DNA from: Dolichospermum flos-aquae CCAP 1403/13F
Lineage (GTDB): Bacteria > Cyanobacteriota > Cyanobacteriia > Cyanobacteriales > Nostocaceae
DNA length: 64,000 nucleotides
Direction of reading: 5' to 3'
Assembly (NCBI RefSeq): GCF_012516395.1
Contig: NZ_CP051206.1
Coordinates: 5,027,334-5,091,333 of the forward strand
Part shown: piece by piece, positions 10,542-33,331 of the stretch
Layout of the letters: every line of letters starts with the position of its first letter
Numbering within the stretch: position 1 is the first letter of the stretch
The notes under the pieces: model-generated
Told to the model about the DNA's origin: nothing
The model's database searches: none
What the model saw: only the letters and a program-made list of their open reading frames with translations
Program-made: the position numbers and the translations under genes

Positions 10542-11294
10542 TTAGATGTTTGCTTGTGCTTGCTGAATACAAGTTTTCAACTTTTCGGCTAAAACCTGGA
10601 CATGGGGTTCAACCATAATTGTGATATGGTTTCCGAGGACAAAATGAATATCAACTGGCTCGCTAGAAAACTCACTCCAGCCCAAGGATAAATCCTGTGA
10701 AACCTCAGCATTTAAATAACCATTAGGGTCTTCTGGTAGATCCTCATTAGCGCGGAGAATTGTCAATTTACCTGAATAAGGCTGTTTTGGTACATAATCA
10801 ACTAGACATAAACAACTATTTTTATAAGCTTGGACGATATTTGTCAACTGGGTAATTTCAGCATTTGGAGGCAGCATATTAGCCATTTTGAAATACTGTA
10901 AAACGTATTTTAGTTGCTCATCCACAGTCAAAGATTGCAGAGTATCATAAGAAATATCCACATTCTTTTCTAAATAAACTTCTATGCCTTTGCTCACTTC
11001 AACTAACCACCTCGCATGATCCCAATTAATATAATCAATCAGCATTTGTTTATCTTTATAGGTTGGTGCTGAAGAATCAACTATTGCCAACAAAGCAACT
11101 TCCTGTCCCTGGTTACGCAACTGTTGAGCCATTTCAAAAGCTACATTTCCCCCATAAGAATGTCCGCCTAAAAAGTATGGTCCCTGTGGCTGAACAGCTT
11201 GCATGGCTTCAATGTAAATACTAGCCATATCCTCAATATGAGTAATCGCACCTAATTCCTGATACAGATTATTTTCAAAACTGTATAACGGTTG
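10542..11294 (-). pseudogene. NRPS thioesterase domain, severed by a MITE
   Basis: About 250 residues of a type I thioesterase with GPYFLGGHSYGGNVAFEMA, the GxSxG nucleophile elbow, and LGNHITIM near the end supplying the catalytic His. In the ancestral frame it follows the fragment at 11413-12477 directly (LGDDQPLYSFEN across the junction), but a 126-bp element at 11305-11430 separates and frame-shifts the two. It would release and cyclise the peptide (Thr ester closure in cyanopeptolins). Alone, an ATG at 11228 could start a 228-residue free thioesterase, but function is doubtful. Confidence 0.8.
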
Positions 11295-11304
11295 ATCATC
11301 TCCT

Positions 11305-11430
11305 CAGGGCAAGCGCATCTTATTTTTAGAATGCTTACTGGACAAAGGTTTTGACGATTGTTAATTTTTGTAACTAAAGGTTGAAACCCTTGCTGGGCAT
11401 GGATTACAGAATTTAGGTGCGTTTGCCCTG
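11305..11430. mobile_element. 126-bp MITE inside the NRPS thioesterase region
   Basis: The termini are inverted repeats, CAGGGCAAGCGCATCT on the left and the complement of CAGGGCAAACGCACCT on the right; 17 of the first 21 positions agree. Both sides carry the same 10 bp, ATCATCTCCT (11295-11304 and 11431-11440), a clean target-site duplication. There is no coding capacity. Removing the element and one duplicate restores the thioesterase frame. I cannot name its parent family; a 10-bp duplication is compatible with IS4-type transposases. Confidence 0.9.
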
Positions 11431-12477
11431 ATCATCTCCTAAACAACGTCCTAAGTGATAGAAGTAAAAAGGTCTACCCCCTGCACCGGGAACACAGAAG
11501 AAAGGTAAGTTTGAACCATTGGGCTGAATTGCTACTAAACAAGATGGAGAAGAATCATCGGATTCTTTTTGGATAATTGCTGCTAACTGTTCTATTGTGG
11601 GGTTTTGAAACAGGTCTTTTACAGGAATATCTTTACCAATCTGCTGCTTAATTTGAGTCATTAAGTAGGGAGCTAAAAGAGAATGACCACCCAAATCAAA
11701 AAAGTTATCCTGTACCCCAATTTTGTCAACTTTAAGAATATTCGACCAGATTTGCAGCAGTTTCAATTCCAATTGATTACGCACTTCGATAAATCTATCG
11801 GAGTTACTGGTGTGAGCAGGTGCTTTCAAGGCGTGGCGGTCTATTTTACCATTAGGAGTAAGTGGTAAAGAGTCCAACATCACAAAAGCACTTGGTATCA
11901 TGTATCCAGGTAGTTTATTGCCAAGAAACTGACGCAGTTCGCTAGTTGTGAGTGTGACATCTTTTTGCGGCACAATATAGGCGACTAACTGCTTACTTCG
12001 GCTACGCTCAGTACAAGTCTCACCTGGGGTATCTTCGCGGACAATGACGCAAGATATTTGCACATCCTCATGTTGACTAAGTACGGCTTCAATTTCGCCT
12101 AATTCAATGCGGAAGCCACGAATTTTAACTTGATGATCAATGCGTCCCAAGTATTCGATATTGCCATCAGGTAAATAGCGTGCCAAGTCCCCGGTTTTAT
12201 ATAATTTTGAATGATCAAAAGGATTGGGGATAAATTTCTCTTGGGTTAACTCTGGTCGGTTGAGATAGCCGCGTGCTAAACCTGCTCCACCAACGTGTAA
12301 CTCTCCTGGTACACCAATCGGTACAGGTTGTAAGTTTTGGTCTAACAAATAGATTTGTGTATTAGAAATTGCCCGACCAATGGGGATTGTTGTGGCGATC
12401 GCCATCTGTCGAAATTGCGCCGTTTGTTCTTCTGTAGATAACCCCTGTAAATCCTCGATTTGCCAGGTTACTGTTGA
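11413..12477 (-). pseudogene. NRPS fragment: C scrap, A (C-terminal half), T, start of TE
   Basis: Begins with about 25 residues resembling mid-condensation domain (VTWQIEDLQGLSTEEQT) and jumps at about 12390 into an adenylation domain from motif A6 onward (IPIGRAISNTQIY, KTGDLARYLPDG, RIDHQVKIRGFRIELGE, NGKIDR). A carrier domain with DNFFDLGGHSLLAPY and a thioesterase start (FFCVPGAGGRPFYF) follow. It stops inside the inserted MITE. The pocket-forming half of the A domain is missing, so the last residue of the peptide cannot be read. A 24-bp dispersed repeat adds eight in-frame residues at 11994-12017. Confidence 0.8.
11994..12017 (-). repeat. 24-bp small dispersed repeat in an A domain
   Basis: The plus-strand text is TACTTCGGCTACGCTCAGTA followed by CAAG. 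It interrupts an otherwise conserved stretch of the A domain and encodes eight extra residues in frame. Copies lie at 16213-16236 (same module position) and 23462-23485 (a different domain). Confidence 0.8.
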
Positions 12478-13775
12478 GGGCGACTGCGGACATCCCCCAC
12501 GAATATCTTACCTTGAGAGGCGATCGCTGTCATTGCCCCTTCTAAAACCTGTAACAGATAGTCCACACTGGGAAAATACTGTACTACTGAGTTGACAACC
12601 ACCGTATCAAAGACTCCTTGGGGGATACCTTCAAAGTTATCTGCTGTTTTGTGTAGCAGGCGGACATTTTCTAGACCCTGGATCTCCCCACATAATCGCT
12701 CCAGATTGCGAATAGTTGCTGAGGAATAATCCGCTCCCCAATATTCTTGACAATAGGGAGCAACGCGAAATAGCAATAACCCACTACCGCAACCAATTTC
12801 TAACACTCGCTGTGGTTTCCCTAGCAAAATTCGGCTCACCGTACTCTCAACCCACTCCCGCATTTCTGAATCGGGAATGGCTTTGCCAGTATAACTACTG
12901 TTCCAACCACTAATATTGAAGGTGGGGTCATCTGTTGGGGTTTGCTGTTGGCTATAGGATTGTTCATAGAGTTTTTGCCAATCACTAACATACTCGCCTT
13001 GCCATTGCGCCAACTGTTCTGGTAAAACTTGACCCTGGAGAGCCGGAACTAAATAAGCCACCAGACGTTTATCACCAGGGATGTCTTCTCTTGCTATGAC
13101 GACACTTTCCTGTACTAAGGGGTGTTGGCTTGCAACTGCTTCAATTTCACCCAGTTCTATGCGAAAACCCCGAATCTTCACTTGATTGTCGATGCGTCCC
13201 AGGTATTCAATCGTCCCATCCGCTAAATAACGACCTAAATCCCCGGTTTTATACAATTTTGATGGGCCAAAGGGATTGGAGATAAATTTCTCTTGGGTTA
13301 ATTCTGGTCGGTTGAGATAGCCTCTGGCTACCCCAACGCCAGCAATATGTAATTCTCCTGGTACACCAATCGGTACAGGCTGTAACTGGGAGTCTAAAAT
13401 GTAAACTTGGACGTTGGCAATGGGACGACCAATGGTAACTTTTGGGTCGAAAGGGGTGCATTTTGCCAGAGTTGCACAGACGCTTCCTTCTGTCGGTCCA
13501 TAAGCATTAAAGAAATTGCGCCCCGCTGACCATTGTTTGATAAGTTCAACCGCACAGGCTTCTCCCGCGACAATTATGGTTTGCAGGGTAGTCAGTTCGA
13601 CTTTATGCAGAACAGCTAATGCCGATGGTGGTAGGGTGATATGGGTAATGGCATAATCTCGTAATCGCTCAATTAAGGGCGTACCGGGCATTAGAGAATC
13701 TTTGCTTCCTAGATAAAGTGTCCCTCCCGATCCCAAGGACATCAAAATTTCTGATATACAAGCATCAAAACTCAA
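12468..13775 (-). pseudogene. NRPS fragment: A(Tyr) with half an N-methyltransferase
   Basis: Continues the Tyr adenylation domain after a frameshift at about 13790-13798 (SFDACISE, TLPPSALAVL, INAYGPTE-type block NAYGPTEGSVCATL). After the A8 region KIRGFRIELGE it enters an N-methyltransferase insert, with SAM motif RVLEIGCGSGLLLFR and FDTVVVNSVVQYFPS. The frame ends abruptly in GDVRS, about halfway through a normal NMT domain. The rest of this module (end of NMT, end of A, T) is absent. Pocket residues read D-A-S-T-I-A-A-V-C, a tyrosine code; with the NMT this predicts N-methyl-Tyr. Confidence 0.85.
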
Positions 13776-16700
13776 GGAAGCAAACTGGAGAATCGACTAT
13801 CAGAATGCAAACCAAAAGCCTGAATCTGAGCTTGAGCTAGGTTGCACAATCCTTGATGCTCAACCATTACCCCTTTCGGTTTACCTGTAGATCCAGAAGT
13901 ATAAATTACATTGGCTAAGTTAGCAGCAGTGACGATTCCCGTGAGATTTTCTTGGCTGTTTTGGGCAATTTGTTGCCAAATTTCATCTAAAAATACAGTT
14001 TTGGCTGGATGTTGGGGTAATTTTTCAATGAGTGTCCATTGGGTCAGCAGTAACGAAACTTGACTGTCCTCTAACATCAAGCTCAGACGTTCTTGGGGAT
14101 ACTCAGGGTCAAGCGGCACGTAAGCACCGCCTGCTTTGAGAATTCCTAAAATTCCCACGAGCATTAAGGGCGATCGCTCTACACAAATCCCCACCAACTG
14201 CTCGGTTTTTAGCCCCAAAGACCGCAGGTAGTGAGCTAACTGATTAGCGCGATTGTTCAACTGTGCATAGGTCAGTTGTTGATTTCCACAGACTACTGCG
14301 ACTACATCGGGAGTCTGTTGTGCCTGTTCTTCTACTAATTGATGAATACACTTGTGGTAGGGATCATCGGTTTGGGTATCATTCCATTCCCTTAATAGTT
14401 GGCGATCGCCCTCTGTTAGCAAGGGTAGTAAAGCCACCGATTGTTGGGAATTGTCAACAATTGCCCCTAATAAAGTTACAAAATTTTGCATCATCCGGGC
14501 AATAGTTGTCCCATCAAACAAATCCCTGTTATACGAGCAAAAGCCTCCCAGACCTTCTGGTACGTCCCACAAGTAAACTTCTAGGTCAACTCGAACCGAG
14601 TCCAGTCCTGAAGGCATATCCTGGACCCTGACACCAGGAAAATCCCAAGGCGCAGTTGGCGCATTCTGGAGGGCAAATACCACCTGCGTCAAGGGATTGC
14701 GATCCAAGTTCCGCTCCAGTTGCAACTCTTCCACTAACATTTCAAAGGGTAAATCCTGATGCTCGTAGGCGTTTTGAGTAACTTTTCGCACCTGCGCTAG
14801 TAAGGCTTCAAAGCTCGGTTCTGGGGAAAGATCGAATCTTAGCGCCAATGTATTGACAAAAAAGCCAATTAATGGTTCGATTTCTTGGCGATTGCGATTA
14901 GCGATCGGTGAGCCAACCACCAAATCTGTTTGTCCACTGTAACGAGACAGTAACACCACAAAACCCGCCAACAGTGTCATAAACAGAGTGCTTCCAGACT
15001 TTTGAGAGAGCTTTTTCAGCTGCTGGGTTAGCTGGCTATCTAGTTGCAGTTGCTCTGTACCGCCTCGGAAAGTTTGTATAGCTGGGCGGGGGCGGTCTGT
15101 GGGTAATTCTAATAGAGGTGGCGCACCTGTTAACTGTTGCTTCCAGTAGCTTAATTGACGCTCTAATACCTGATTTGTCAGCCACTGACGCTGCCAGACA
15201 GCGAAATCGGCATACTGTATAGATAATTCTGGTAATTCAACAGAACTACCCATTGAAAAGCTGCGGTAATAGGCTGAGAGTTCATCGATCAAAATGCCCA
15301 TTGACCAACCATCAGCTGCAATATGATGAATTGCTAGTAGCAATACATACTCGTCGGGCGCAACTTGCCAAAGCTTGACTCGCAGCACTGAACCATTAGC
15401 CAAATCGAAGGGTTTACAGGCTTCTGCTGTCGCCAGTTCCTCTACTTGTTTGGTGGGGTCTTGGAGATTTTGTAAATCCACCACTGGTAGGGTGATGGTC
15501 ATACTGGGTGCGATCGCCTGCACTGGCTTATTATCCTTAATCTTAAACTGAGTCCGCAGAGGTTCATGGCGTTGCGCGATCGCCGCAAAAGCTTGCTCTA
15601 AAGCTTTGACATTGAGATTCCCCACCAGCCGCATGGTGAAATCTATTGTGTAAGCACTACTTTCACCTTCCAACTGATTTACAAACCACAGGCGTTCCTG
15701 CGCCCACGATAGAGGTATGTCTCTGTCTCGGTCAACAGGTGCGATGGCTGGCACCGTCAAACCTGAACCAGTTTCTAGCTGACTTAAAATCGCCTCACTT
15801 AACTGAGCAACTGTCGGTGATTCAAAGATATAGCGTAACGGTAACGAAATCTTAAAAGCTTCCTGCAAGCGAGAAATTACCTGAGTTGCTAGTAGAGAAT
15901 GTCCTCCAAGTTCAAAGAAGTTATCGTCAATGCCTACTTGCTCTAACCTCAGCACTTGAGTCCAAATGAGTGCTAATTTTTCCTCAATGGGGTTACGGGG
16001 TGCAACAAATTTGTCTGCTATTTCACTGTGTAAATCTGGTGCTGGTAGGGCGCGGCGGTCTATTTTTCCATTTGGTGTTATCGGTAAAGACTCCAGGATT
16101 ACAAAAGCCTGGGGCACCATGTATCCAGGTAGTTTATTGCCAAGAAACTGACGCAGTTCGCTAGTTGTGAGTGTGACATTTTTTTCCGGCACAATATAGG
16201 CGACTAACTGCTTACTTCGGCTACCCTCAGTACAAGTCTCACCAGGGGTATCTTCGCTGACAATGACGCAAGATATTTGCACATCCTCATGTTGACTAAG
16301 TACGGCTTCAATTTCGCCTAATTCAATGCGGAAGCCACGAATTTTAACTTGATGATCGATGCGTCCCAAGTATTCTATATTGCCATCAGGTAAATAGCGT
16401 GCCAAGTCCCCGGTTTTATATAATTTTGAATTGTCAAAGGGATTGGGGATAAATTTCTCTTGGGTTAACTCTGGTCGGTTGAGATAGCCGCGTGCTAAAC
16501 CTGCTCCACCAATGTGCAATTCTCCTGGTACACCGATGGGTACTGGCTGTAAGTGTGAGTCTAAGATGTAGATTTGCGCGTTGGCGATTGGACGACCGAT
16601 GGAGATTTTCTGATCAGCATCAGTACATTTTGCTACTGTAGAACAGACACTGGCTTCTGTCGGACCGTAGGCATTGAAGAAATTTCTGCCCACAGACCAT

Positions 16701-17521
16701 TGTCTGATGAGTTCACCAGAACAAGCTTCTCCAGCAACAATTATTGTTTGCAACGCCGGGAGTTCTTCCGTCGGGAGAACTGCCAGTGCTGATGGTGGTA
16801 AGGTGACATGGGTAATGCAATAATTGCGTAATCGCTCAATTAACGGCATACCCGGTAATAAAGAGTCTTTTGTTCCTAAGTAAAGTGTTGCCCCTGATCC
16901 CAGAGCCATGACAACTTCCCAGATAGAAGCATCAAAACTGAGGGAAGCAAACTGGAGAATGCAGCTATCAGAATGCAAACCAAAAGTTTGCATCTGAGCT
17001 TGAGCTAGGTTGCATAATCCCTTATGCTCAACCATTACACCTTTAGGTTTACCTGTTGAACCGGAAGTGTAAATTACATTCGCTAGATGAAAAGCCGTCA
17101 CCCCACTGGTAGGATTATCTTGATTATTTTGGACAATTTCTTCCCATATCTCATCCAAACAAACAAGCTGCGCTTGATGCGATTGTAATTTGTCCAGGAG
17201 TGACTGTTGGGTTAATAGTACCTTCACCTGGGCATCTTCAAGGATAAAGCTCAAACGCTCTTGGGGATACTCTGGGTCAAGTGGTACATAAGCTCCACCC
17301 GCTTTGAGAATTGCAAGTAGTCCCACGATCATTTCTAAAGAACGCTCTACACAAATACCCACCAGTACATCTGCTCCCACTCCATGAGAGCGCAAATAGT
17401 GCGCCAACTGATTAGCGCGACAATTCAACTCGTGATATGTCAGTTGTTGCTCTTCAAATACCACCGCCACAGCATCCGGGTTGCGCTCTACCTTCTCCTC
17501 AAACAAATGATGAATGCACAA
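13772..17521 (-). pseudogene. NRPS fragment: A(Phe)-T-C-A(Tyr, first half)
   Basis: 1249 residues. Order: an adenylation domain from its N-terminus (about 1-500; pocket D-A-W-T-I-A-A-V-C, a phenylalanine code), a carrier domain (DNFFELGGHSLLATQ, about 560), a condensation domain (about 600-1035, with intact HHIAADGWS) and the first 180 residues of the next A domain. Upstream, the frame fuses in DNA to the end of a condensation domain because T and C are deleted at about 17580. Downstream, one base is missing at 13790-13798 compared with the paralogous stretch at about 16960, which ends the frame. Confidence 0.85.
16213..16236 (-). repeat. 24-bp small dispersed repeat in A(Phe)
   Basis: Same element and same relative position as at 11994-12017, with one further substitution, so the two probably arose by module duplication. 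It adds eight residues in frame between conserved A-domain blocks. Confidence 0.8.
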
Positions 17522-17559
17522 ATCATGGGGATAGTCTACTTGTGTATCATTCCACTCAA

Positions 17560-17972
17560 TTAATAATTGCTGCTGCTCAACTTGTCTGTTCTGTTGCTGG
17601 ATAAATCTGGTGCTGGTAGGGCGCGACGGTCTACTTTGCGGTTTGGTGTTAGTGGGAGAAAGTCCAGAAATACGAAAGCCTGGGGCACCATGTAAAGAGG
17701 CAGATTCCTAGAGAGGAATTGACGCAGTTCGCTAATTGTGGGTATTTTTTCGGAATATGGTACTACGTAGGCAACTAAATATTTATCCCCTGGGGTATCT
17801 TCGCGGATGATCACACAAGATGTCTGCACATCAATATATTGGTTTAGTACCGCTTCAATTTCTCCCAACTCGATGCGGAATCCCCGAATTTTTACTTGAT
17901 TGTCGATGCGTCCAAAGCACTCAATATTACCATCTGGCAAATAGCGGGCTAAATCCCCGGTTTTATAAAGTC
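17560..17972 (-). pseudogene. NRPS fragment: C-terminal part of the Ahp-type A domain
   Basis: Reads RLYKTGDLARY, then RIDNQVKIRGFRIELGE, then RKVDRRALPAPDL, i.e. motifs A7 to A10 of an adenylation domain. It is cut from its own N-terminal part (17949-22781) by the 14-bp insertion at 17973-17986. It ends at about 17580, where the sequence passes from the post-A linker directly into the tail of a condensation domain (VEQQQLLIEWNDTQVDY) in another frame, so the T and C domains that should follow are missing. Confidence 0.8.
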
Positions 17973-20900
17973 GGGAACTGGGGACTGGGAATTAGGCAGA
18001 ATTTCTGCCCCGCTGAAGGGGTTGGGAATAAATTTTTCCTCCGTCAGTTCTGGGCGGTTGAGATAACCTCTTGCTAAACGAACACCACACAGGTGCAGTT
18101 CACCTTTGACTCCCACGGGTACTGGTTGCAGATGACGGTCAAGGATGTAGGCTTGTGTATTGGCAATGGGACGACCAATCAGCACTGAGTTGGCTGTTTC
18201 TGATTGGGGATGGAGTAGGTCATGAACTATGGCGGTTACAGATGCTTCGGTTGGACCGTAGACATTTAGACAATTGACGCGATCGCCTACTACTTGTCGC
18301 CATATTGTCACTGTTTCTGGGAGAACTGCATCCCCACCCACAGCCACTAACCTCAGACTTTGCGGTACAGTTGCATTGTCTTGAGATACCGCTACTGCCC
18401 ATTCATGCCAATAGGCTGGAGTAATATTTAAGACGCTGAGACTTTCTTGGGCAATAAATTGGGCAAAACTGGCAAAGTCAGGAAACATTTGTGTGGGTCT
18501 TAATACCACCGTTGCGCCTTTGTACCAAGTGGGGAATATTTCTTCCGCCGCTACATCAAAGCTGAAGGACGCAAATTGCAACACACGATCTGCGCTAGTT
18601 AGGGCAAATACTTCACTAATTGCACTGCTATGGTTAACTAAAGCAGCATGAGTCAGCATCACGCCTTTGGGTTTGCCGGTAGACCCAGAAGTGTACAATA
18701 GACAAGTTAAGTTTTCTGGTTTGACCTCACTGACCGGATTTGCTGGACTTTGATTCGTCAGCATCTCAGATTCTCTATCTAAGACAATGACTTTTACTCC
18801 TTGTACTGGTAGAGAATTGAGTAATTTTTGCTGTGTGATTAGCACAGAAAATTGTGAATCCTCAGATATGTCAGCTAAACGCTGCTGGGGATAATCAGGG
18901 TCGAGGGGGACATAACCGCCACCGGCTTTGAGGACGGCTAACAATGTGACGATGATGGATAGCGATCGCTCTAAATAAATCCCCACCAAAACTTCTGGTT
19001 TTACACCAATATCTTGTAAGTAGTGTGCTAATTGATTAGCTTGGGTGTTCAACTCACCATAAGTTAATTGTTGATTTTCAAATATTACTGCTACTGCATC
19101 TGGGGTAAACCTAACCTGCTGTTCAAACAACTGATGGATACATTTATCTTGGGGATAATCGGCTTGAGTATCGTTCCATTCTACAAATAACTGGTGTTGC
19201 TCAACTGCTGTTAGCATTGGCAATTGGTCAATTCGCTCACTGGGATTCGCCACAATTGCTGCCAGGAGTGTGACAAAATGACCCGCCATCCGGGCGATGG
19301 TGCTATGGTCAAACAAGTCGGTGTTGTACTCCCACACTCCCACCAGTCCATTACCTGTGTTCTGCATTCCTAAGGTCAGATCAAATTTTGCCGTTACGGT
19401 TTCTATTGGTAATGGACTGACAGTTAACCCAGTCAACTCTACGGTCGCTAGGGGATCATTTTGGAGGAGAAAATCTACCTGAAACAGTGGTGCATGGCTG
19501 AGGTCGCGTTCTGGCTGCAATACTTCCACCAACATTTCAAAGGGTAAATCCTGATGAGCATAAGCATCCATTGCCATCAACCGAACACGAGTGAGTAATT
19601 CCGCAAAACTGGGATTACCTGATAAATCAGTCCGTAAAACTAAAGTATTGACAAAAAAGCCAATTAACCCTTCTATTTCACTACGATGACGATTAGCAAT
19701 TGGTGTCCCTACCAAAATATCTGATTGTTCTGTGTAGCGATAAAGTAGGGTATCAAAGGCTGCCAACAACATCATGAACAACGTCACCCCTTGTTCCTGA
19801 CTCAGTTTTGTCAATTTTCGACTTAACTCAACAGAGAGTGCAAACTCATGATATGCCCCAGCGGTGGTTTGCACAGCAGGTCTGGGTCGGTCTGTGGGGA
19901 GTGATAATAGGGTTGGTGCATCTTTTAGTTGTTGTTGCCAATAACTCAATTGGTTTTGTAATACATCCCCGGCTAACCACTGTCTCTGCCATAAGGCGAA
20001 ATCTGCGTACTGAATCGGCAGTGGTGCGAGATTGGCAGGTTGACCTATTGAATAAGCATTGTACAGGGTCGCTAGTTCTTGGACAAACACCCCCATGGAC
20101 CAGCCATCAGAGACAATATGGTGCATACAAACTAAAAATAGATGCTCTGTTACAGACAGCACTACTAATGTCGCTCTCACTAATGCTTGTTTTTCTAGGT
20201 AAAAGGGTTGTAGAGCTTGTTGTTGTACTAATTGCTGTGCAGCTATTTCTTGTTCGGTTGTCGATAAATGCCTCAAGTCAACAACTGATACTGTCCAATT
20301 TGTTGCTGTTTGAATAATTTGTCTTGGTTGTCCATCAACTGTAATTAAATTGGTGCGTAAGGCTTCGTGGCGATGAATAATTTCTTGTAAGCTTTGTTCT
20401 AAGGCTACTTGATTGAGAGTTCCGACTAGACGTAAAGCTATGGGTATGTTGTATAAGGCACTGTTCGGCTCGAACTGGTCTAAAAACCACAGCCGATTTT
20501 GAGCAAATGATAATAGTAATTCTGCATTCTCTGCCCTTGGTAAGATGGGTGGGGAAGTTAGTTCTAAGTCTTGTTGTTGTAAATGCTGAATCGATGGCAT
20601 CAATTCGGCTATTGTCGGTGCAGCAAATAACTCCCGCAATGGTAGTTCCACTTGGAAAATGTTGCGGATGTGTGAAACCAGTTGTGTTGCTAGGAGTGAG
20701 TGTCCACCGAAGGTAAAGAAGTTATCTTGTATCCCCACTTGCTCTACTTTGAGGACTTGCGCCCAAATTTGTGCCAGCATTTCCTCAACTGGAGTGCGCG
20801 GGGCTACATATTTGTGTTTGAGTTCCCTGTGTAAATCCGGTGTGGGTAAAGCGCGGTGGTCGATTTTACCATTGGGAGTTAGTGGCAGAGATTCTAAAAT

Positions 20901-22781: not shown

Positions 22782-22795
22782 TAACCGAACACGAG

Positions 22796-23767
22796 TCAGT
22801 AATTCACTAAATCGAGGATTCCCTCCAAGTTGGTACGCATTACCAATGTATTGACAAAAAAGCCAATTAATGCTTCTATTTCACCGTAATTGCGGTTGGC
22901 TATAGGAGCCCCTACCACAATGTCTGATTGTCCTGTGTAGCGGTAAAGTAGGGTATCAAATGCTGCCAACAATGTCATGAATAGTGTTACTTCCTGCTCC
23001 TGACTCAGTTTTGTCAACTTTTGAGTTAACTCAACTGAAAGTGCAAACTTTTGATGTGCGCCAACGAAGGTTTGCACAGCAGGTCTGGGTCTGTCTGTGG
23101 GTAGCGATAATAAAGCTGGTGCATCTTTTAGTTGTTTTTGCCAGTAACTCAATTGGCTTTGCAGCAAATCCCCTTGCAAGAACTCTCTTTGCCAAATTGC
23201 AAAATCTGCGTATTGAATTGCTAATGGCTCTAACGGTGTTCGCTGACCTATTGAATAAGCATTGTACAGTGCCGCTAGTTCTTGGAAAAACACTCCCATT
23301 GACCAGCCATCACTGACAATGTGGTGCATACACACTAATAGTAAGTGTTCTGTCTCGGATAGTACGACTAATGTCGCTCTGACTAACGATTCACTTGCTA
23401 AATCAAAGGGTTGAATTGCTTGTTTTTGTGCCAATTGCTGTGCAGCACTTTCTTGTTCGGTTACTTCGACTTCGCTCAGTACAAGTGTAGATAAATGCTG
23501 CAAGTCAACAACTGATACTGTCCAATTTATTTCTGTTTGAATGATTTGTGCTGGTTGTCCATCAATTGTCATGAAATTGGTGCGTAAGGCTTCGTGACGA
23601 TCAATAATTTCTTTTAAGCTTTGTGCCAAGGCTGCTCGATTGAGAGTTCCTACTAGACGCAAAGCTAAAGGTATGTTGTATAAGGGACTGTTCGGCTGTA
23701 ACTGGTCTAAAAACCACAAACGCTGTTGAGCATAAGATAGTGGTAATTCTTCATTATGATTTTGCAT
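22796..23767 (-). pseudogene. Start of the second NRPS gene: condensation domain, frameshifted
   Basis: A real gene start: ATG at 23767 preceded by AAGGAAAAAGA and overlapping the stop of the upstream gene by 14 nt (ATGCAAAATCATAA). It encodes most of an LCL-type condensation domain (LPLSYAQQRLWFLDQL, then CMHHIVSDGWSMGVF, then IGFFVNTLVMRT). The frame breaks at 22819-22826, where one base is missing in a G-rich run (GGAGGGAATCC on the coding strand), and coding continues in the 17949-22781 fragment. A 24-bp dispersed repeat adds LVLSEVEV-type residues at 23462-23485. Confidence 0.85.
23462..23485 (-). repeat. 24-bp small dispersed repeat in a C domain
   Basis: Plus-strand text TACTTCGACTTCGCTCAGTA then CAAG. 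It splits the conserved QHLST/TEQE stretch of the condensation domain in frame. This is an insertion event independent of the copies in A domains. Confidence 0.8.
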
Positions 23768-25353
23768 TCTTTTTCCTTGGTAAGATGGGTGGTACTTTTA
23801 TTTCTATGTTTTGTTGCTGTAACTGCTGAATCAATGGTGCTAATTCGGCAACTGTCGGTGCCGCAAATAAACTACGCAACGGTAGTTCTACTTTGAAGCT
23901 AGTGCGGATGCGTGAAACCAATTGGGTTGCTAGTAGCGAGTGTCCGCCAAGTTCAAAGAAGTTGTCATGAATCCCCACTTGCTCTACTCTCAGGACTTTT
24001 GCCCAAATTTGTGCCAATTTTTCTTCAACGGGAGTGCGGGGTGCTACTAAACTCTCTTCTATTCCTGCGCGTGATTCTGGAACCGGTAGGGAGCGACGGT
24101 CTATTTTGCCATTGGACGTGAGGGGTAAAGACTCCAAGATGACTATTGCATTTGGTATCATGTAATCTGGTAACTTTTCCTTGAGGAAGCTACGCAGTTC
24201 TGCTGTTGTGGGAGCTTGTGCCACTTGCGGTACTACGTAAGCTACCAGACGTTTGTCGCCCGGTTCATCCTCCCTGACTACCACCACACTTTCCCAAACG
24301 GCTGGATGTTGTGCCAGTAATCCTTCAATTTCGCCCAACTCAATGCGGAAGCCGCGAATCTTTACTTGCTGGTCAATTCGCCCTAAATACTCTAACTCGC
24401 CATTGGGCAAATAACGGGCTAAGTCTCCTGTTCTATAAAGGCGTTCTCCTCCCTTACTTCTTTGGAAGGGGTTGGAGATAAACCTTTGTCCTGTGAGTTC
24501 GTCACGATGGAGATAGCCACGAGTCACCCCCTCACCACCAACGTACATCTCCCCTGGAACTCCAATCGGTACTGGTTGTAAATGCTGGTCTAGCACATAC
24601 ACTTGTAAGTCGGGAATCGGGCGACCAATGACACTAGCTGTGCGATTTAAATCGTCAAGGCTCAATGGACGATAGGTTACGTGTACAGTAGTTTCCGTAA
24701 TCCCGTACATATTCACTAACTGCGGTTTCTGGTCGCCGTGGCGCTCAAACCAGGGTTGCAAACTCTCGAGTTCCAGAGCTTCTCCACCAAAAATTACGAG
24801 ACGGAGGTTCAAATTGCTCATTCCGATTGACTGTTCTGCTTGAATTAACTGGCGGAAAGCTGAAGGCGTTTGATTGAGAATTGTGACCTGCTCTTGAGAT
24901 AATAATTTATAGAACGATTCAGGCGATCGCGTCAATAAATACGGCACTACTACCAGTCGTCCACCATAAAGCAATGCACCCCAAATTTCCCAAACAGAGA
25001 AGTCGAAGGCATAGGAGTGGAACATTGTCCACACATCTTGAGAATTAAATTTATACCAAGAGTTTGTGGCGGCAAACAGACGAGTTACATGATGGTGGTT
25101 GACTAAAACACCTTTAGGCTGACCTGTAGAACCTGAAGTGTAGATGACGTATGCCAGATTAGGCGATGTGGCAGTATTGACAGGGTTGGAGTTGCTGTTT
25201 TGGGTAATTTTTTCCAAGTCGGTATCTAAGCAGACAAGCTGTGCAGTATGGGCTGGTAGCTTGTTGACTAATTGCTGTTGGGTCAGTAGCACTTTCACCT
25301 GAGTGTCTGTGAGGATGAAACTCAACCGTTCAGGTGGATACTCAGGGTCAAGG

Positions 25354-26471
25354 GGCACATAAGCCCCACCCGCCTTGAGAATACCCAGTAATCCCACAAT
25401 CATCTCCCAAGAGCGCTCCACACAAATACCCACCAGCACATCGGCTCCCACACCCAAAGACTGCAAGTAATGCGCCAACTGATTAGCTCGACAATTTAAT
25501 TCATGATATGTAAGTTGTTGCTCTTCAAATACCACCGCCACTGCATCCGGTGTCCGCCGGACTTGCTGCTCAAATAACTGATGAATACACTGATCAACAG
25601 GATAATCTACCTGAGTATGATTCCACTCAATTAATAACTGCTGTTTCTCTGGTTCTGTTAACAAAGGTAATTGGGAAATCTGTTCCAGAGGATTAGCCAC
25701 AATTGACGAAAGTAGTGTCAGAAAATGACCAGTCATGCGCTCAATAGTGCTGGCATCAAACAAGTCAGTATTGTACTCCCACACCCCAATCAATCCATTA
25801 CCTGTGTTCTCCATTGCTAAGGTAAGATCAAACTTTGCCGTTGCACCTTCTATTGGCAATGAACTAATACTTAACCCACTCAACTCTACTTCTGACAGGT
25901 AAGGATTCTGGAGGGCAAACATCACCTGAAATAGGGGTGTATGACTAAGGTCGCGTTCTGGCTGCAATGCTTCCACCAGCATTTCCAATGGCAAATTCTG
26001 ATGAGCATAAGCGGATAAAGCCATAGACCGAACACGAGTGAGTAATTCCGCAAAACTGGGATTTTCCGATAAATTACTCCGCATCACTAAAGTATTGACA
26101 AAAAAGCCAATTAACCCTTCTATTTCACTGCGATCGCGGTTAGCAATTGGAGTCCCTACCAAAATGTCTTCTGTTCCTGTGTAGCGATACAGTAATACAT
26201 CAAATGCTGCCAACAGCGTCATAAACAGAGTACAATCTTGTTGCTGACTCAGTTGCATTAACCCTTGAGTTAATTCCACAGAAAGAGCAAAATCTTGATA
26301 TGCGCCTACGAAGGTTTGCACAGCAGGTCTGGGTCGGTCTGTGGGCAGCACTAACAGGGCTGGTGCATCTTTTAGTTGTTGTTGCCAGTAATTCAGTTGG
26401 CTTTGCAGTACATCTCCGACTAACCAGTTTCTTTGCCAAATTGCAAAATCTGCGTACTGAATCGGCAGTGG
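25354..26471 (-). repeat. 1.1-kb near-identical module repeat, copy A
   Basis: Matches 28561-29678 at a constant offset of 3207 bp with only a handful of substitutions seen by eye. It covers the end of a C domain and the start of an A domain. Adjacent module parts are much more divergent, indicating recent duplication or gene conversion. Confidence 0.85.
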
Positions 26472-28560
26472 AGTTAAAGGTATTCGCGTAGCGTCTGGCA
26501 GAGAAGGTAGACCTATTGAATAAGCATTGTATAATGCTGCCAGTTCTGCGACAAACACACCCATTGACCAGCCATCAGAGACAATGTGGTGCATACACAC
26601 ATTCAACAGGTGTTCTGTCTCAGAAAGCACTACTAATGTTACTCTGATTAATACTTCACTTGCCAAGTCAAAGGATTGAATAGCTTGTTTTTGTGCCAAT
26701 TGCTGTGCAGCTATTTCTTGTGCGCTGGTGGATAAATGCCTGAAGTTAACAACTGATACTGTCCAATTTGTTGCTGTTTGAATGACTTGCCTTGGTGTAC
26801 CATCAACTGTAATGAAATTGGTGCGTAATGCTTCGTGACGATGAATAATTTCTTCTAAGCTTTGTGCTAAGGCTGCTTGATTGAGAGTTCCGACTAGACG
26901 CAAAGCTATGGGGATATTATATAAGGCACTGTTCGGTTGTAATTGGTCTAAAAACCACAACCGCTGTTGGGCATAAGACAAGGGTAATTCTGCATTCTCT
27001 GCCCTTGGTAAAATGGGTGGGGAAGTCAGTTCTAACTCTTGTTGCTGCAACCGTTGAATATGTGGCGACAATTGAGCAACTGTCGGTGCAGCAAATAAAC
27101 TACGCAACGGTAGTTCTACTTTGAAGCTAGTGCGGATACGGGAAACTAATTGGGTTGCTAGTAGGGAGTGTCCGCCAAAGGTAAAGAAGTTATCATGAAT
27201 GCCTACTTGCTCTAGTTTAAGGACTTGTGCCCAAATTAGTGACAGGATTTCTTCGGTGGGGGTGCGTGGAGCTACGTATTTGTCGGTTCCTTGACCCTGT
27301 AAATCGGGAACAGGTAAAGCGCGGCGGTCTACTTTGCCATTAGGGGTTAAGGGGAGGGAATCCAGGATCACAAAGATATTGGGAACCATGTAATCTGGCA
27401 GTTTTGTCTTGAGGAATTGCGGTAATTCACTAACAGTACAAGTCATCTGGGAAGACGGCACAATGTAGCCTACTAGCCGTTTATTCCCAGGGTCGTCTTC
27501 ACGGGCGATAACACAAGCTACCTGTACATCATCTCTTTGGTTCAGTACCGCTTCAATTTCTGCTAATTCGATCCGGAAACCACGGATTTTTACTTGATTA
27601 TCAATGCGTCCCAGGTATTCTATATTGCCATTGGGCAAATAACGGGCTAAGTCCCCGGTTTTGTAGAGACGGGAATTAGGGTAGGTGCTAAAGGGATTGG
27701 CGATAAATTTCTCTTGTGTCAATTCGGGGCGATTGAGGTAGCCTCTGGCTAATCCGGCTCCACTTATATGCAATTCGCCTGGTACACCAACGGGTAATGC
27801 TTGTAAATTTTGGTCAAGGATATAAATTTGGGTATTGGAAATTGGGCGACCAATGGGGACAATTTGTGTATATATCTCTCGCTGACAATTGCAGAAAGTT
27901 GCATCGATACAAGTTTCCGTCGGTCCGTAAAGATTGTGTAAGTTCACATCTAGCTTGCTTAACAAGCCTTCAAGTAGAGCAACTGGTAAGACTTCACCTC
28001 CACAGAAGACGTGTTTGAGGGAGTGACAAGTTTCGATTCCTCCCTGCTCTAAAAGCATTTGTAACAAAGATGGGACAAGTTGAACAATCGTTACCTGCTG
28101 TTGGGCAATTAACCTTAACAGATAAGCACTATCAGTATGACCTCCTGGTTTAGCTATTAACAACTGTCCACCGGCTAATAATGGAGCGTAGAATTCCCAA
28201 ACTGACGCATCAAAGCCAAAGGGAGTTTTTTGCAATACTTTGTCTTTTTCCGTCAGGGGGAATGTTGCTTGCATCCAGGACATATGGTTGCAAAGGTTAC
28301 TGTGAGAGAGCATTACCCCCTTGGGTGTGCCAGTAGAACCGGAGGTATAAATCACATAAGCTAAGTTACCAGGTTGTACCTCAGTGATTGGACTCTCCTG
28401 ACTAGATTCACAGATCAGCAGCCAGTCGGTATCTAAGCAGACGACAGGCGCTTGATTTTCAGGTAATTTCTCGACTAAATGCTGTTGGGTTAATAAGACT
28501 GAAACTTGAGCATCTGCCCACATAAAAGTCAAACGCTCAGTTGGATAATCTGGGTCAAGC

Positions 28561-29678
28561 GGCACATAAGCCCCACCCGCCTTGAGAATACCCAGTAATC
28601 CCACAATCATCTCCCAAGAGCGCTCCACACAAATACCCACCAGCACATCGGCTCCCACACCCAAAGACTGCAAGTAATGCGCCAACTGATTAGCTCGACA
28701 ATTTAATTCATGATATGTAAGTTGTTGCTCTTCAAATACCACCGCCACTGCATCCGGTGTCCGCCGGACTTGCTGCTCAAATAACTGATGAATACACTGA
28801 TCAACAGGATAATCTACCTGAGTATGATTCCACTCAATTAATAACTGCTGTTTCTCTGGTTCTGTTAACAAAGGTAATTGGGAAATCTGTTCCAGAGGAT
28901 TAGCCACAATTGACGAAAGTAGTGTCAGAAAATGACCAGTCATGCGCTCAATAGTGCTGGCATCAAACAAGTCAGTATTGTACTCCCACACCCCAATCAA
29001 TCCATTACTTGTGTTCTCCATTGCTAAGGTAAGATCAAACTTTGCCGTTGCACCTTCTATTGGCAATGAACTAATACTTAACCCACTCAACTCTACTTCT
29101 GACAGGTAAGGATTCTGGAGGGCAAACATCACCTGAAATAGGGGTGTATGACTAAGGTCGCGTTCTGGCTGCAATGCTTCCACCAGCATTTCCAATGGCA
29201 AATTCTGATGAGCATAGGCGGATAAAGCCATAGACCGAACACGAGTGAGTAATTCCGCAAAACTGGGATTTTCCGATAAATTACTCCGCATCACTAAAGT
29301 ATTGACAAAAAAGCCAATTAACCCTTCTATTTCACTGCGATCGCGGTTAGCAATTGGAGTCCCTACCAAAATGTCTTCTGTTCCTGTGTAGCGATACAGT
29401 AATACATCAAATGCTGCCAACAGCGTCATAAACAGAGTACAATCTTGTTGCTGACTCAGTTGCATTAACCCTTGAGTTAATTCCACAGAAAGAGCAAAAT
29501 CTTGATATGCGCCTACGAAGGTTTGCACAGCAGGTCTGGGTCGGTCTGTGGGCAGCACTAACAGGGCTGGGGCATCTTTTAGTTGTTGTTGCCAGTAACT
29601 CAGTTGGCTTTGCAGTACATCCTCGACTAACCAGTTTCTTTGCCAAATTGCAAAATCTGCGTACTGAATCGGCAGTGG
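28561..29678 (-). repeat. 1.1-kb near-identical module repeat, copy B
   Basis: Partner of 25354-26471. The near-identity ends just before the deletion scar at 29715-29730. Confidence 0.85.
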
Positions 29679-29680
29679 GG

Positions 29681-32179
29681 CTAAGGGAGAAGGTAGACCT
29701 TGAGAATAAGCAAGGAACTGTTCGGTTGTAACTGGTCTAAAAACCACAACCGCTGTTGGGCATAAGACAAGGGTAATTCTGCATTCTCGTCCCTTGGTAA
29801 AATGGGTGGGGAAGTCAGTTCTAACTCTTGTTGCTGCAACCGTTGAATATGTGGAGACAATTGAGCAACTGTCGGTGCAGCAAATAAACTACGCAACGGT
29901 AGTTCTACTTTGAAGCTAGTGCGGATGCGAGAAACCAATTGGGTTGCTAGTAGGGAGTGTCCGCCAAAGGTAAAGAAGTTATCATGAATACCTACTTGCT
30001 CTAGTTTGAGGACTTGTGCCCAAATTAGTGACAGGATTTCTTCGGTGGGAGTGCGTGGAGCTACGTACTGGTCTGTGAGTTCAGCGTGTAAATCTGGTAT
30101 GGGCAAAGCGCGGCGGTCTACTTTGCCATTGGGGGTGAGGGGTAAGGAATCTAAAATGACGAAAGCCTGGGGACCCATGTATTCTGGCAGCTTTTGTGTG
30201 AGGAAGCTACGCAGTTCGCTGACAGTGGCTCTCTGCTCTTTTTGCGACACAATGTAGGCAACTAAGCGCTTGTCCCCAGGAATGTCTTCACGGACAATCA
30301 CGCAAGATGCTTGCACATGGGGATATTGGCTGAGGACTGTTTCGATTTCGCCCAACTCGATGCGGAATCCCCGGATTTTTACTTGATTATCGCTGCGACC
30401 CAAGTATTCGATATTGCCATCTGGCAAATAACGGGCTAAGTCCCCGGTTTTGTAGAGACGGGAATTAGGGTAGGTGCTAAAGGGATTGGCGATAAATTTT
30501 TCTTGTGTTAACTCTGGTCGGTTGAGGTAGCCGCGTGCTAATCCGACTCCACCTATATGCAATTCTCCTGGTACACCTACTGGTACTGGTTGTAAATTTT
30601 CGTCAAGGATATAAAGTTGGGTATTGGCAATGGGACGACCAATGGGAGGCAGCAGCGGCCAAGTTTCCACGGAATTAGTCAGAGTAAAACTGGTGACGAC
30701 ATGACTTTCCGATGGTCCATAATGATTGTGCAAAGTACAATCAGTTAACTGGCTCAACCATTGAGAAATGGCAGGAGTAATCTGCAACTGTTCCCCCGCA
30801 GTGATGATTTGGCGCAGATTACTAATAACTAATTCCCGCTCAATAGCCACCTCGGCTAGTTGCTGTAAACCAACAAAGGGAAGAAACAGTCTCTCAACAG
30901 CTTGTTCTTGGAGTAAACCTAACACAGCCAATGGTTCTCGGCGCAATTGCTCTCCAATCAACAGCAATGTCCCCCCAGAACACCAGGTTGAGAAGATTTC
31001 TTGGAAGGAAACATCAAAGCTAATCGGCGCAAATTGCAGGGTTTTTGCCCCACTAGAAATTGTGACATTTTGCCGTTGCCACAGGAGCAGATTGCAAAGA
31101 GCAAGCTGATTCATGGCCACACCTTTTGGTTGACCTGTAGAACCAGATGTGTAAATCACATAACCCAAGTTATGTCCTTGCACCTCAGAGATGAGATTCT
31201 CTGGACTCAACTGAGAAATTAGTTGCCATGCGGTATCTAAGCAGACAATATTTTCTTGATGGGTTTGTAATTTTTCAACTAATTTTTGTTGACTTAGTAA
31301 TACCGAAACTTGAGCATCTTCTAGCATGAAAGTCAGACGCTCTTGTGGATATTCAGGGTCAATTGGTACATAGGCTCCACCCGCTTTGAGAATGCCTAGT
31401 AGTCCCACTACCATCTCTAAAGAACGCTCTACACAAATCCCCACCAGCACATCCGCACCCACACCATGAGAGCGTAAGTAATGCGCTAATTGATTAGCCT
31501 GACAATTCAACTGACTATAGGTAAGTTGTTGATTTTCAAACACCACCGCCACTGCATCCGGGGTCAGATCAACCTGCGACTCAAATAACTGATGGATACA
31601 TTTATCCTGGGGATCATCCACCTGAGTATCATTCCACTCCAGCAAAATCTCCCGCCGCTGCTGCTCAGATAACAAAGGCAGGTAAGCAATACACTGGTCA
31701 GGTTCCGTGAGAATACCTTGCAGAAAAACAGTAAACTGCTCTTGCATTCTGGCAATACTGTCATCATTCAATACATCGGTGTTATAGAACCAACAACATT
31801 TCTTCCCATCTGAGGAAATTATGAAAGTTAGATCACTTCCCAACGGACTTTGGTAGTCCTCTAGTTTTTCCACACGCTCTACAACCACTGGGAAAAACTG
31901 CTCACTACCCCGATCGGACAACGAACGAAGAGATGGATACCTAGTCACCACATCCCGGACATAAGTTAGGGGAAGTTGGGTAAATTCGAACTGTTTTTTT
32001 AAAGCCGCAAAACTTTGCTCGTAATCTATATTTACCCGATAAGGAACAACTGACGCAAACAAGCTTTCGAGTCCGACCAACTGTCGTTGTAATTCAATAT
32101 CTTTAAATCCGATATCAAAACATCCGCTGCCACCAATTCGAGCCAGATAAGTAATAAAAGCAGCTGCGAGAAAATCACT
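29681..32179 (-). pseudogene. First NRPS gene, front part: C-like(end)-A(Pro)-T-C(start)
   Basis: Coding resumes immediately after an in-frame TGA (32180-32182): AAAFITYLARIGGSG is clearly condensation-like sequence in the same frame. The following A domain has pocket D-V-Q-F-I-A-H-V-V, a proline code, then T (DNFFTFGGHSLLATQ) and the first 25 residues of a C domain (LPLSYAQQRLWFLDQLQ). That C domain then loses about 400 bp and its frame. Proline as first residue with formyltransferase upstream matches a formyl-Pro starter. Confidence 0.85.
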
Positions 32180-33331
32180 TCAGTGCCATTGGGGATGGCG
32201 TTGTAACCATAAGGTAATTGCCTCATCGGGTACAAACATCCTGGCTCTGGCATACTGTGGTTCTTTCAGGTGTAATGATGCTGTCTGCTTTGCCTCAGGA
32301 ACAGTGATGGACTCTAAGGTTCCTAGCCTTTCTACCCAAAAAGCTTCATGCTTAACAATTGACTGATCAAACTTCTCAATCTGCTTGACCTGATTAGGCT
32401 CAAGATCACAAAACTGATACCCGACTTGCAAGCCAAATTTCTCCACCAGATATGAAATTGATAGTGCTTGACTATTAATAGCCAGTACCTGACGTAGTGC
32501 AATATCATAACTTGCTGTAGAAACTGTGATATAAGTAGGTTCAATGTTTGTGATCGTTCCCGGAGGGTAGTTGGACAAGTTACCCTGAACCTCAAGCTTA
32601 GAGACTATAAACAAATTGCTGTCTATAGCCAATTTAGTCCGACCTAATGGATTGGGATAAGAACCAAAATCTAAAGCCCTAATCAGGGCGTCTAACTCAT
32701 AAGCACAACGCTTCCATGAGATGATTCCGCCTGCCCTCAGCCTTTTGAAGCGGGAAAAATAGGTGCGCTCATTCAGGTTTACTTTGGTTGCTACAAATGT
32801 ACCAGAGGATAGCTCATCAACTATTTGAGCAAATGCATTAATAGCAGCTTCATAGCATTTCCCATTCAGAGTCAAAGCTGTCTCGTCATCAGCAATATCG
32901 ATAATTACCTGCTTCAGGATATCGCCCGCATCAACCATAGCGGCCATTATATGCCACGTCACCCCATGAGTCTTCTCCTGATTCATCAACGCCCAGGAAG
33001 TGGCATTGACTCCTGCATATCTTGGTAGGGGGGCATCATGATAGTTGATCGCAAATTGGCGTGGTAACTCTAGAATTTCCTGGGGTAAAACATACCTATT
33101 GACAATACTGAACAGGTAATCAAAAGGCTGCTGGCTTAAAAATTCTCCGAGATGATCTGTTGGCTTAATATAAGGTATGTTTTTCCCCTCAGCCCAGTTA
33201 ATTATCGATGCATCTGCGGAGATAATGCCGTAAATTACGTGACCTTGATTGATCAGTATTTCAGCACATTGAATCGGTAAAGTTCCCTCGCCAATAATAA
33301 AGCAATTAAATTTATTTTGATGATTAGCCAT
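32180..33331 (-). CDS. NRPS starter formyltransferase domain, truncated by an in-frame stop
   Basis: 383 residues. The N-terminal part is a methionyl-tRNA formyltransferase-like fold with FAINYHDAPLPRYAGVNATSWALMN, containing the catalytic Asn-His region. In such enzymes it uses 10-formyl-tetrahydrofolate to formylate the amino group of the starter on its carrier protein (as in LgrA and anabaenopeptilide synthetase). Residues 300-383 are the start of a condensation-like domain and end at TGA in ...QRHPQWH, after which homologous sequence continues in frame. A TGG-to-TGA change would explain this. It could still yield a free formyltransferase, but the fused enzyme is lost. Confidence 0.82.
   Translation of the reverse strand: MANHQNKFNCFIIGEGTLPIQCAEILINQGHVIYGIISADASIINWAEGKNIPYIKPTDHLGEFLSQQPFDYLFSIVNRYVLPQEILELPRQFAINYHDAPLPRYAGVNATSWALMNQEKTHGVTWHIMAAMVDAGDILKQVIIDIADDETALTLNGKCYEAAINAFAQIVDELSSGTFVATKVNLNERTYFSRFKRLRAGGIISWKRCAYELDALIRALDFGSYPNPLGRTKLAIDSNLFIVSKLEVQGNLSNYPPGTITNIEPTYITVSTASYDIALRQVLAINSQALSISYLVEKFGLQVGYQFCDLEPNQVKQIEKFDQSIVKHEAFWVERLGTLESITVPEAKQTASLHLKEPQYARARMFVPDEAITLWLQRHPQWH

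What the first reader, a model, noticed from the sequence alone, without database searches (positions are those of the whole stretch)
10542..33331. Decayed formylated cyanopeptolin (anabaenopeptilide-like) synthetase
Seen: domain order formyltransferase, (C-like)-A-T, C-A-T, C-A-T | C-A-T, C-A, A-T, C-A(NMT), A(part)-T-TE. Known: specificity pockets aligned to GrsA positions read as Pro, Gln, Thr, unassigned, the code I recall for Ahp modules, Phe, and Tyr with N-methyltransferase. Inference: the ancestor made formyl-Pro-Gln-[Thr-X-Ahp-Phe-NMeTyr-aa], an Ahp-cyclodepsipeptide protease inhibitor. The operon is now broken in many places while the MT and SDR genes behind it remain intact.
Basis: partly seen in the sequence, partly recalled or inferred. 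Interest (0 to 1): 0.8.

Follow-up and report, generated by a model that had tools for sequence, protein, structure and literature searches.

The report
Broken eight-module formyl-cyanopeptolin synthetase
This is the wreck of an eight-step bacterial assembly line that probably once made a formyl-capped protease-blocking peptide, broken by deletions, a stop codon, frameshifts and a jumping-DNA insertion; a small gene damaged with it was found in the checked relatives that carry the same kind of line.

Summary
Window 10542-33331 (minus strand) holds an NRPS line, formyltransferase-A-T followed by seven more modules, with pocket codes Pro, Gln, Thr, (DLAFSGAVA), Ahp (DVENAGVVT), Phe, N-Me-Tyr and one unreadable residue. 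Ten lesions break it and its accessory genes: one in-frame stop, three small frame changes, four internal losses of about 0.4 to 2 kb, a 126-bp MITE in the thioesterase with a perfect 10-bp target duplication, and a truncated accessory gene. The MITE and large losses are hard to explain as sequencing error. The break at 23.76 kb is most likely a natural gene boundary. Eight related family clusters have the same Ahp-NMeTyr-TE order, seven on open frames as far as read; none gave a close formyltransferase match. Described anabaenopeptilide synthetase has seven modules; this one had eight, so it is a variant. Beyond the finding: the truncated accessory gene is DUF6014 with an HExxH motif. Of 388 order genomes, all 17 others with a confirmed Ahp code carry a strong DUF6014 match and none of 6 with the sister code DVETTGAVT does. 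It is a candidate for the Ahp-forming step; function untested.

The parts
32180..33331 (-). formyltransferase (F) starter domain, ORF of 383 aa ended by an in-frame stop
   Evidence: Pfam Formyl_trans_N/C; 73-74% identical to F of L031 and L032, where the frame runs on
29681..32179 (-). C remnant, A1 (DVQFIAHVV, Pro-like), T1, first 29 positions of C2
29688..29711 (-). junction of a 418-bp loss inside C2
   Evidence: comparison with the 96% identical paralogous stretch at 25217-26480 and the 86% stretch at 26923-27857
23754..29747 (-). rest of C2, A2 (DAWQFGLID, Gln), T2, C3, A3 (DFWNIGMVH, Thr), T3; probable normal gene end
22796..23767 (-). start of second synthetase protein: C4 positions 1-303, then frame change near 22.8 kb
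17949..22880 (-). rest of C4, A4 (DLAFSGAVA), T4, C5, A5 (DVENAGVVT, Ahp); frame change near 17.96 kb
17560..17991 (-). C-terminal subdomain of A5; T5 and C6 missing (about 540 residues) at about 17.58 kb
13772..17600 (-). A6 (DAWTIAAVC, Phe), T6, C7, first half of A7; frame change near 13.79 kb
12468..13796 (-). second half of A7 (DASTIAAVC, Tyr) and first part of N-methyltransferase; MT end, T7 and C8 start missing
11413..12507 (-). 27-residue scrap of C8, A8 tail, T8, start of thioesterase; about 670 residues of C8-A8 missing near 12.40 kb
11305..11430 (-). 126-bp MITE inserted in the thioesterase, 10-bp target duplication AGGAGATGAT on both sides
   Evidence: ends resemble one end next to an ISAs1-like transposase gene of the same genome
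10542..11303 (-). rest of thioesterase domain
   Evidence: Pfam Thioesterase E 2.7e-25
9696..10487 (-). intact SAM methyltransferase gene of the cluster
   Evidence: 69-83% identical orthologues in 8 other of 208 family genomes; two further genomes have a 44-45% relative
8923..9660 (-). intact SDR (short-chain dehydrogenase) gene of the cluster
   Evidence: 71-89% identical orthologues in 9 other of 208 family genomes
8206..8892 (-). truncated DUF6014 gene: C-terminal 229 residues only; HEAGH motif reads YEAGH

Best explanation
A dead biosynthetic operon. Its ancestor was an eight-module Ahp-cyclodepsipeptide (cyanopeptolin-type) synthetase with a formyltransferase starter: module 1 would load and N-formylate proline, modules 2-8 would add Gln, Thr, a probable homo-aromatic residue, the Ahp precursor, Phe, N-methyl-Tyr and one last residue, and the thioesterase would close the ester ring on Thr, giving formyl-Pro-Gln-[Thr-X-Ahp-Phe-NMeTyr-X], a substrate-like serine-protease inhibitor. 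MT, SDR and DUF6014 genes behind it would tailor the peptide; the DUF6014 HExxH protein is a candidate for making Ahp. The line is now inactivated by nine lesions between F and TE and a tenth in DUF6014, including an insertion of a multicopy 126-bp MITE with ISAs1-like ends in the thioesterase. Shown: domains, codes, lesions, MITE with target duplication, related clusters on open frames, DUF6014 link. Inferred: the product, its activity, the order of lesions, the role of MT, SDR and DUF6014.
For: Domain order and pieces. Codes; Thr and Ahp codes as in oci (PMC2533009). Eight related clusters in the family with DVENAGVVT, DASTI-A(N-MT) and final C-A-T-TE, followed by MT and SDR, or SDR alone in G105; seven have open NRPS frames as far as read (L071 and L074 read only in part), while G105 (L072) is cut into pieces by frame changes. 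Formyl starters 73-74% identical and unbroken in L031 and L032. MITE: 40 matches scored of 57 candidates in the genome; of 30 loci checked, the main copy has an exact 9-10 bp duplication in 25. Three of the four sites of stop or small frame change have no homopolymer of 5 or more in the stretches looked at. Assembly 99.96% complete with 0 contamination, in 2 contigs. Literature passages: apd clusters occur in the Dolichospermum ADA-alpha group (PMC7232259), and MITEs interrupt genes in Anabaena sp. 90 and mcy clusters of brackish strains (PMC3542288).
Against: Reads were not available, so the small frame changes could still be errors. The apd cluster of Anabaena sp. 90 could not be compared base by base (not met in the collections searched). 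A8 cannot be read. Specificity codes are predictions. No intact relative with F plus eight modules was found: three of the four family genomes with a close F (G018, G017, G081) have it in other lines, the fourth (G076, 43%) was not resolved, and the six Ahp relatives whose start was fetched begin with a C domain or another loading unit.
Confidence: 0.9

Rival explanations
1. Assembly or sequencing error: the operon is intact in the strain, and repetitive NRPS modules were collapsed or mis-polished.
For: NRPS modules repeat (up to 96% over 1264 bp); small frame changes are typical of unpolished long reads, and the related cluster in G105 (L072) shows several frame changes; two other NRPS regions of the own genome (L075, L078) also have partial C domains or split frames.
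Against: MITE with exact target duplication; losses do not end at equivalent points of two modules, as a collapse would; three of four break sites looked at lack homopolymers; other long NRPS frames of the genome are open (2187, 2536 and 3105 aa).
Confidence: 0.07
2. The pieces still work as a shortened or split assembly line, or individual proteins (F, MT, SDR) have been kept for another use.
For: MT and SDR are intact; the two-module piece 23754-29747 is open; mcn operons lacking whole genes are reported to still make product (PMC12838216 passage).
Against: C2, C4, A5, A7 and TE are each cut, T5, C6 and T7 are absent, and the only release domain of the line is split by the MITE; no second Ahp A domain at E 1e-100 and no DUF6014 match elsewhere in the genome.
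Confidence: 0.03
3. The ancestor made a different formylated depsipeptide, not an Ahp cyclodepsipeptide.
For: A close sister code, DVETTGAVT, exists in six genomes whose product is unknown to me.
Against: A5 reads DVENAGVVT and is 85-88% identical to A5 of three related lines and 81% to a fourth; the following Phe, NMe-Tyr, aa-TE order matches.
Confidence: 0.04

Closest known systems
Anabaenopeptilide synthetase apd, Anabaena sp. 90 (Rouhiainen 2000; known here only through passages of PMC3252866, PMC2533009 and PMC8949500)
   Same: Formyltransferase in the initiation module, Ahp peptide, N-methylation; downstream methyltransferase and reductase genes (the last two recalled)
   Different: apd is described with seven modules and six C domains and a halogenase; here eight modules, no halogenase or ABC transporter hit in the window, and the line is broken
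Cyanopeptolin synthetases oci (Planktothrix) and mcn (Microcystis)
   Same: Thr and Ahp codes DFWNIGMVH and DVENAGVVT as printed for oci, methyltransferase present
   Different: No formyltransferase there (glyceric acid and sulfotransferase in oci, none in mcn); seven A domains in oci (PMC2533009)
Formyl starter NRPS of Amazonocrinis nigriterrae CENA67 (L009/L032) and of G018 (L031)
   Same: F 73-74% identical, same F-C remnant-A-T arrangement
   Different: Three modules in the stretch read, without the Ahp code; A1 codes DPWATGCID and DATKIGEVG instead of Pro-like
MITEs of Anabaena sp. 90 and the ISAs1 family
   Same: Many copies, inverted ends CAGGGCAA/TTGCCCTG, 10-bp target duplications
   Different: PMC3542288 calls its MITEs type II with no parent IS (passage); here the ends resemble one end of an ISAs1-like element of the same genome; whether the MITE families are the same was not tested

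Membership tests
Ahp-cyclodepsipeptide (cyanopeptolin) synthetase | Ahp-position A domain with code DVENAGVVT | tested here: met
   code printed for OciB-A4 in PMC2533009
Ahp-cyclodepsipeptide (cyanopeptolin) synthetase | Thr module two before Ahp, N-methyl aromatic module two after it, terminal TE | tested here: met
   A3 DFWNIGMVH, A7 DASTIAAVC with MT part, TE
Ahp-cyclodepsipeptide (cyanopeptolin) synthetase | Working, uninterrupted synthetase proteins | tested here: not met
   nine lesions between F and TE
Anabaenopeptilide (apd) synthetase | Formyltransferase in the starter module | tested here: met
Anabaenopeptilide (apd) synthetase | Seven modules, six C domains | tested here: not met
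   eight A domains, seven C domains inferred against PMC3252866 and PMC2533009 passages
Anabaenopeptilide (apd) synthetase | Halogenase gene and downstream ABC transporter | tested here: not met
   no tblastn hit in the window (E 1e-5) to the FAD-halogenase-like protein of L060 or its counterpart in L062, nor to the transporter-side neighbours of L060, L065, L067, L069, L072 and L074 (of these only the L060 halogenase-like protein and the L065 ABC transporter were typed by Pfam)
Anabaenopeptilide (apd) synthetase | Product is an anabaenopeptilide | not testable with these tools
   needs LC-MS; the line is broken
MITE (ISAs1-type) | Short element, inverted ends, constant target duplication, many copies | tested here: met
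   ISAs1 link rests on one end only
alphaKG-dependent HExxH enzymes (TIGR04267), considered for the DUF6014 protein | Profile similarity to TIGR04267 members | tested here: not met
   hhalign probability 1.6% and 0.6%, not at the HExxH motif; shallow alignments of 13 and 15 sequences
Zincin metallopeptidases, considered for the DUF6014 protein | HExxH motif plus significant family match | tested here: inconclusive
   HxAGH invariant in the 13 aligned; best PDB match metalloelastase E 0.64, matrixin E 0.0043 for one of 13 members in Pfam

The most novel reading that the evidence does not exclude
The accessory gene damaged here, DUF6014 (N-terminal DUF6014 domain plus an HExxH...EEWRxD half), is an essential part of cyanobacterial Ahp-cyclodepsipeptide pathways and is the unidentified metalloenzyme, or its helper, that turns the module-5 residue into 3-amino-6-hydroxy-2-piperidone.
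Probability: 0.3. Interest if true: 0.75.

Novelty: new variant of a known kind. Interest (0 to 1): 0.45.

Why it matters
Only three NRPS products with a cis formylation domain had been described by 2022 (PMC8949500 passage), so an eight-module formyl-Pro version widens a very small group, even as a fossil. It is also a clear case of a protease-inhibitor pathway lost by deletion plus a mobile MITE in what is probably a bloom-forming cyanobacterium. The larger point is DUF6014: how cyanobacteria make Ahp, the residue that defines more than 200 natural products (PMC8097286 passage), was said in 2011 to remain to be analysed (PMC3252866 passage). A gene found in 17 of 17 genomes with the confirmed Ahp code and in none of 6 with the sister code makes that question directly testable by one gene deletion.

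Tried and rejected
Frameshift between F and A1: rejected, same frame with one stop. C-like remnant as decay: rejected, present in unbroken relatives. Break at 23.76 kb as a lesion: rejected as unlikely, matching gene boundary in two relatives, though two others run through. Halogenase and ABC transporter in the window: no hit. Structure of the DUF6014 remnant: single-sequence model useless, pLDDT 30, so no fold search was made. DUF6014 relatives in viral contigs: none. DUF6014 as TIGR04267 member: no profile support. The three strong DUF6014 genomes without an A5 match (G440, G329, G450) were looked at: G440 lies on a 4.6-kb contig, G329 runs to a contig end, G450 unresolved. G076's F protein was not resolved. 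Papers: 10 searches used; of papers I saw listings, abstract starts and found passages only, no whole text. 'DUF6014' gave 0 papers. In these searches I met no paper that names the Ahp-forming enzyme of cyanobacteria, but they were not aimed at it alone (searches came closest), subscription papers are not held, and a gene such as mcnG may be this one (recalled, unchecked).
Full report
What is there. The window lies at 5,027,334-5,091,333 of a 5.15-Mb chromosome (second contig about 69 kb; assembly 99.96% complete). The genus is probably Dolichospermum: the MITE found here is 100% identical to one on a plasmid of Dolichospermum sp. UHCC 0315A, one of 4 plasmid records with a match; this is an inference. 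On the minus strand, from 33.3 to 8.2 kb, lie a formyltransferase, NRPS pieces of eight modules, a thioesterase, a methyltransferase, an SDR and the end of a DUF6014 gene.

Specificity. Codes were read by aligning A domains to A6 at the GrsA pocket positions (positions assigned by rule from recalled motif spacing; nine residues). Window: A1 DVQFIAHVV, A2 DAWQFGLID, A3 DFWNIGMVH, A4 DLAFSGAVA, A5 DVENAGVVT, A6 DAWTIAAVC, A7 DASTIAAVC; A8 lacks the pocket. DFWNIGMVH and DVENAGVVT are the Thr and Ahp codes printed for oci (PMC2533009 passage); the Pro, Gln, Phe and Tyr meanings are recalled, and the fourth letter of A1 depends on the alignment. A4 is closest (68%) to the A domain with DLGFTGCVT in the genome's own anabaenopeptin-type cluster, the next best being 64%, which suggests a homo-aromatic residue.

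Lesions. (1) One in-frame stop at 32180-32182 between F and module 1; in L031 and L032 the same protein runs on. (2) 418 bp lost in C2 against its 96% identical paralogue C3. (3) Frame change in C4 near 22.8 kb. (4) Frame change behind A5 near 17.96 kb. (5) T5 and C6 lost, about 546 residues by L071 and 536 by L069. (6) Frame change in A7 near 13.79 kb. (7) End of MT, T7 and start of C8 lost. (8) About 670 residues from C8 to A8 lost in frame, leaving a 27-residue C8 scrap (70% over 27 residues to L069; for 5, 7, 8). (9) MITE in TE. (10) DUF6014 without its first half. At the four sites of stop or small frame change, homopolymers of five or more occur only near the C4 site (one run of six). 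The switch at 23754-23767 is not counted: the ends and starts there match those of L059 and L070, while G103 and G129 have one continuous protein.

MITE. The 126-bp element has ends CAGGGCAA/TTGCCCTG and a 10-bp duplication AGGAGATGAT. The own genome gave 57 candidates, of which 40 were scored and matched (95-100% identity, window copy included); of 30 loci fetched, the main copy has an exact 9-10 bp duplication in 25 and none in 5. One end of the MITE (CAGGGCAAGCGCATCT) resembles the end CAGGGGAAACGCATCT found near an ISAs1-like transposase gene in L100 and L076; the family name of that transposase is recalled, and the other end of that element was not mapped.

Relatives. The F protein has close relatives (E up to 1e-65) in 4 other genomes of 217 in the family: G018, G017 and G081 in lines without the Ahp code in the stretches read, G076 not resolved. 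The MT gene has orthologues at 69-83% in 8 other genomes and a 44-45% relative in 2 (11 of 208 with the own one), the SDR gene in 9 other genomes (10 of 208). None of the 15 other genomes of the genus has either above these thresholds. Regions of nine genomes were fetched: eight hold an Ahp line; G107's MT-SDR region had no NRPS beside it, but a TE module lies beside its DUF6014 gene elsewhere. A second MT-SDR site of G129 was not fetched. Seven of the eight Ahp lines have open frames as far as read; G105 is cut by frame changes. None of the eight is among the F hits. So the line is sporadic in the family. PMC7232259 reports apd clusters in seven of nine ADA-alpha strains (passage); those genomes could not be read here.

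Against the known. The described anabaenopeptilide line has seven modules (PMC3252866) and six C domains (PMC2533009); this one had eight A domains. The two nearly identical stretches around C2 and C3 (96% over 1264 bp, then 86% over 936 bp) lie one module apart, so module duplication or conversion could have added the extra residue (inference).

DUF6014. Four relatives hold a ~400-residue gene beside or near MT/SDR whose last 229 residues match 8206-8892 of the window at 84-87%. Its first half is Pfam DUF6014; its second half has HEAGH...GVEEWRxDS, with H217, A219, G220, H221, E245, W247, R248 and D250 invariant in 13 proteins aligned, out of 19 loci fetched. The window reads YEAGH. In 388 genomes of the order, an A5-like domain (E up to 1e-145, five candidates scored per genome) occurs in 24: the own one, 17 with DVENAGVVT and 6 with DVETTGAVT. 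A second draw of 388, taken to be the same genomes, gave DUF6014 matches in 24 genomes; 20 are strong (E up to 1.7e-71) and 4 weak or partial (G460, G296, G521, G169) and left out of the count. The strong ones include all 17, none of the 6 (G002, G013 and G196 are listed as without a match; G102, G195 and G204 are absent from the hit list), and 3 more (G440, G329, G450) where the Ahp module was not found. In 12 of the 17 the two genes lie within 20 kb, in 2 at 46-47 kb, in 3 on different contigs; the 17 span four families (read). Four further Ahp genomes found through MT or SDR (G193, G129, G035, G105) also have it, and G202, found through DUF6014, has the Ahp code. Fisher p is 6e-27 for the strong matches, but genomes are related and the genes travel as a cluster, so it is no probability of function. 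An ABC transporter gene is a frequent neighbour too: of eight proteins near DUF6014 scanned, 5 are ABC transporters, 2 patatins and 1 a transposase; its universality was not tested. Linkage thus shows cluster membership, not an Ahp role. The Ahp idea rests on universality, the metal-site-like motif and the sister-code contrast. In crocapeptin the moiety is made by a P450 and a helper (title seen in the reference list of PMC10608790). The protein is not detectably a TIGR04267 alphaKG-HExxH enzyme.

Verdict. Decay and the cyanopeptolin ancestry are well supported; the exact product is inferred; nothing was shown about activity.

Noticed in passing
window 8206-8892 (-): DUF6014 remnant; DUF6014 genes accompany the Ahp module in all 17 other order genomes with the confirmed code and carry an HExxH-type motif in the 13 aligned
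   Followed up: partly
window 34042-35409 (+): LamG-patatin gene matching residues 14-488 of 669-residue proteins that sit near DUF6014 in G329 and G450 (57-58% identity); shorter here, perhaps also truncated
   Followed up: partly
L075:3554-9141 (own genome, anabaenopeptin-type cluster): The first starter protein pair lacks most of its C domain (only positions 326-447 found), while the second A-T-C-A-T-E-like protein (2187 aa) is open; another NRPS internal loss in the same genome
   Followed up: partly
L078:4781-11099 (own genome): A further NRPS with partial C domains and split frames
   Followed up: no
L012-L022, 11 of 15 other genomes of the genus: A different formyltransferase protein in open frames of about 1520-1760 aa, 31-36% identical in the formyltransferase part; an A domain follows in the three looked at
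   Followed up: no
L143, L145, L147, L148, L149, L150: NRPS module with sister code DVETTGAVT, 74-77% identical to the Ahp A domain, in genomes without a DUF6014 hit; substrate unknown
   Followed up: partly
window around 11.9, 16.1 and 23.4 kb: Short in-frame insertions in linkers and domains that look by eye like dispersed repeats; the 11.8-12.4 and 16.0-16.6 kb stretches are 90.5% identical over 570 bp, suggesting conversion between modules 6 and 8
   Followed up: no
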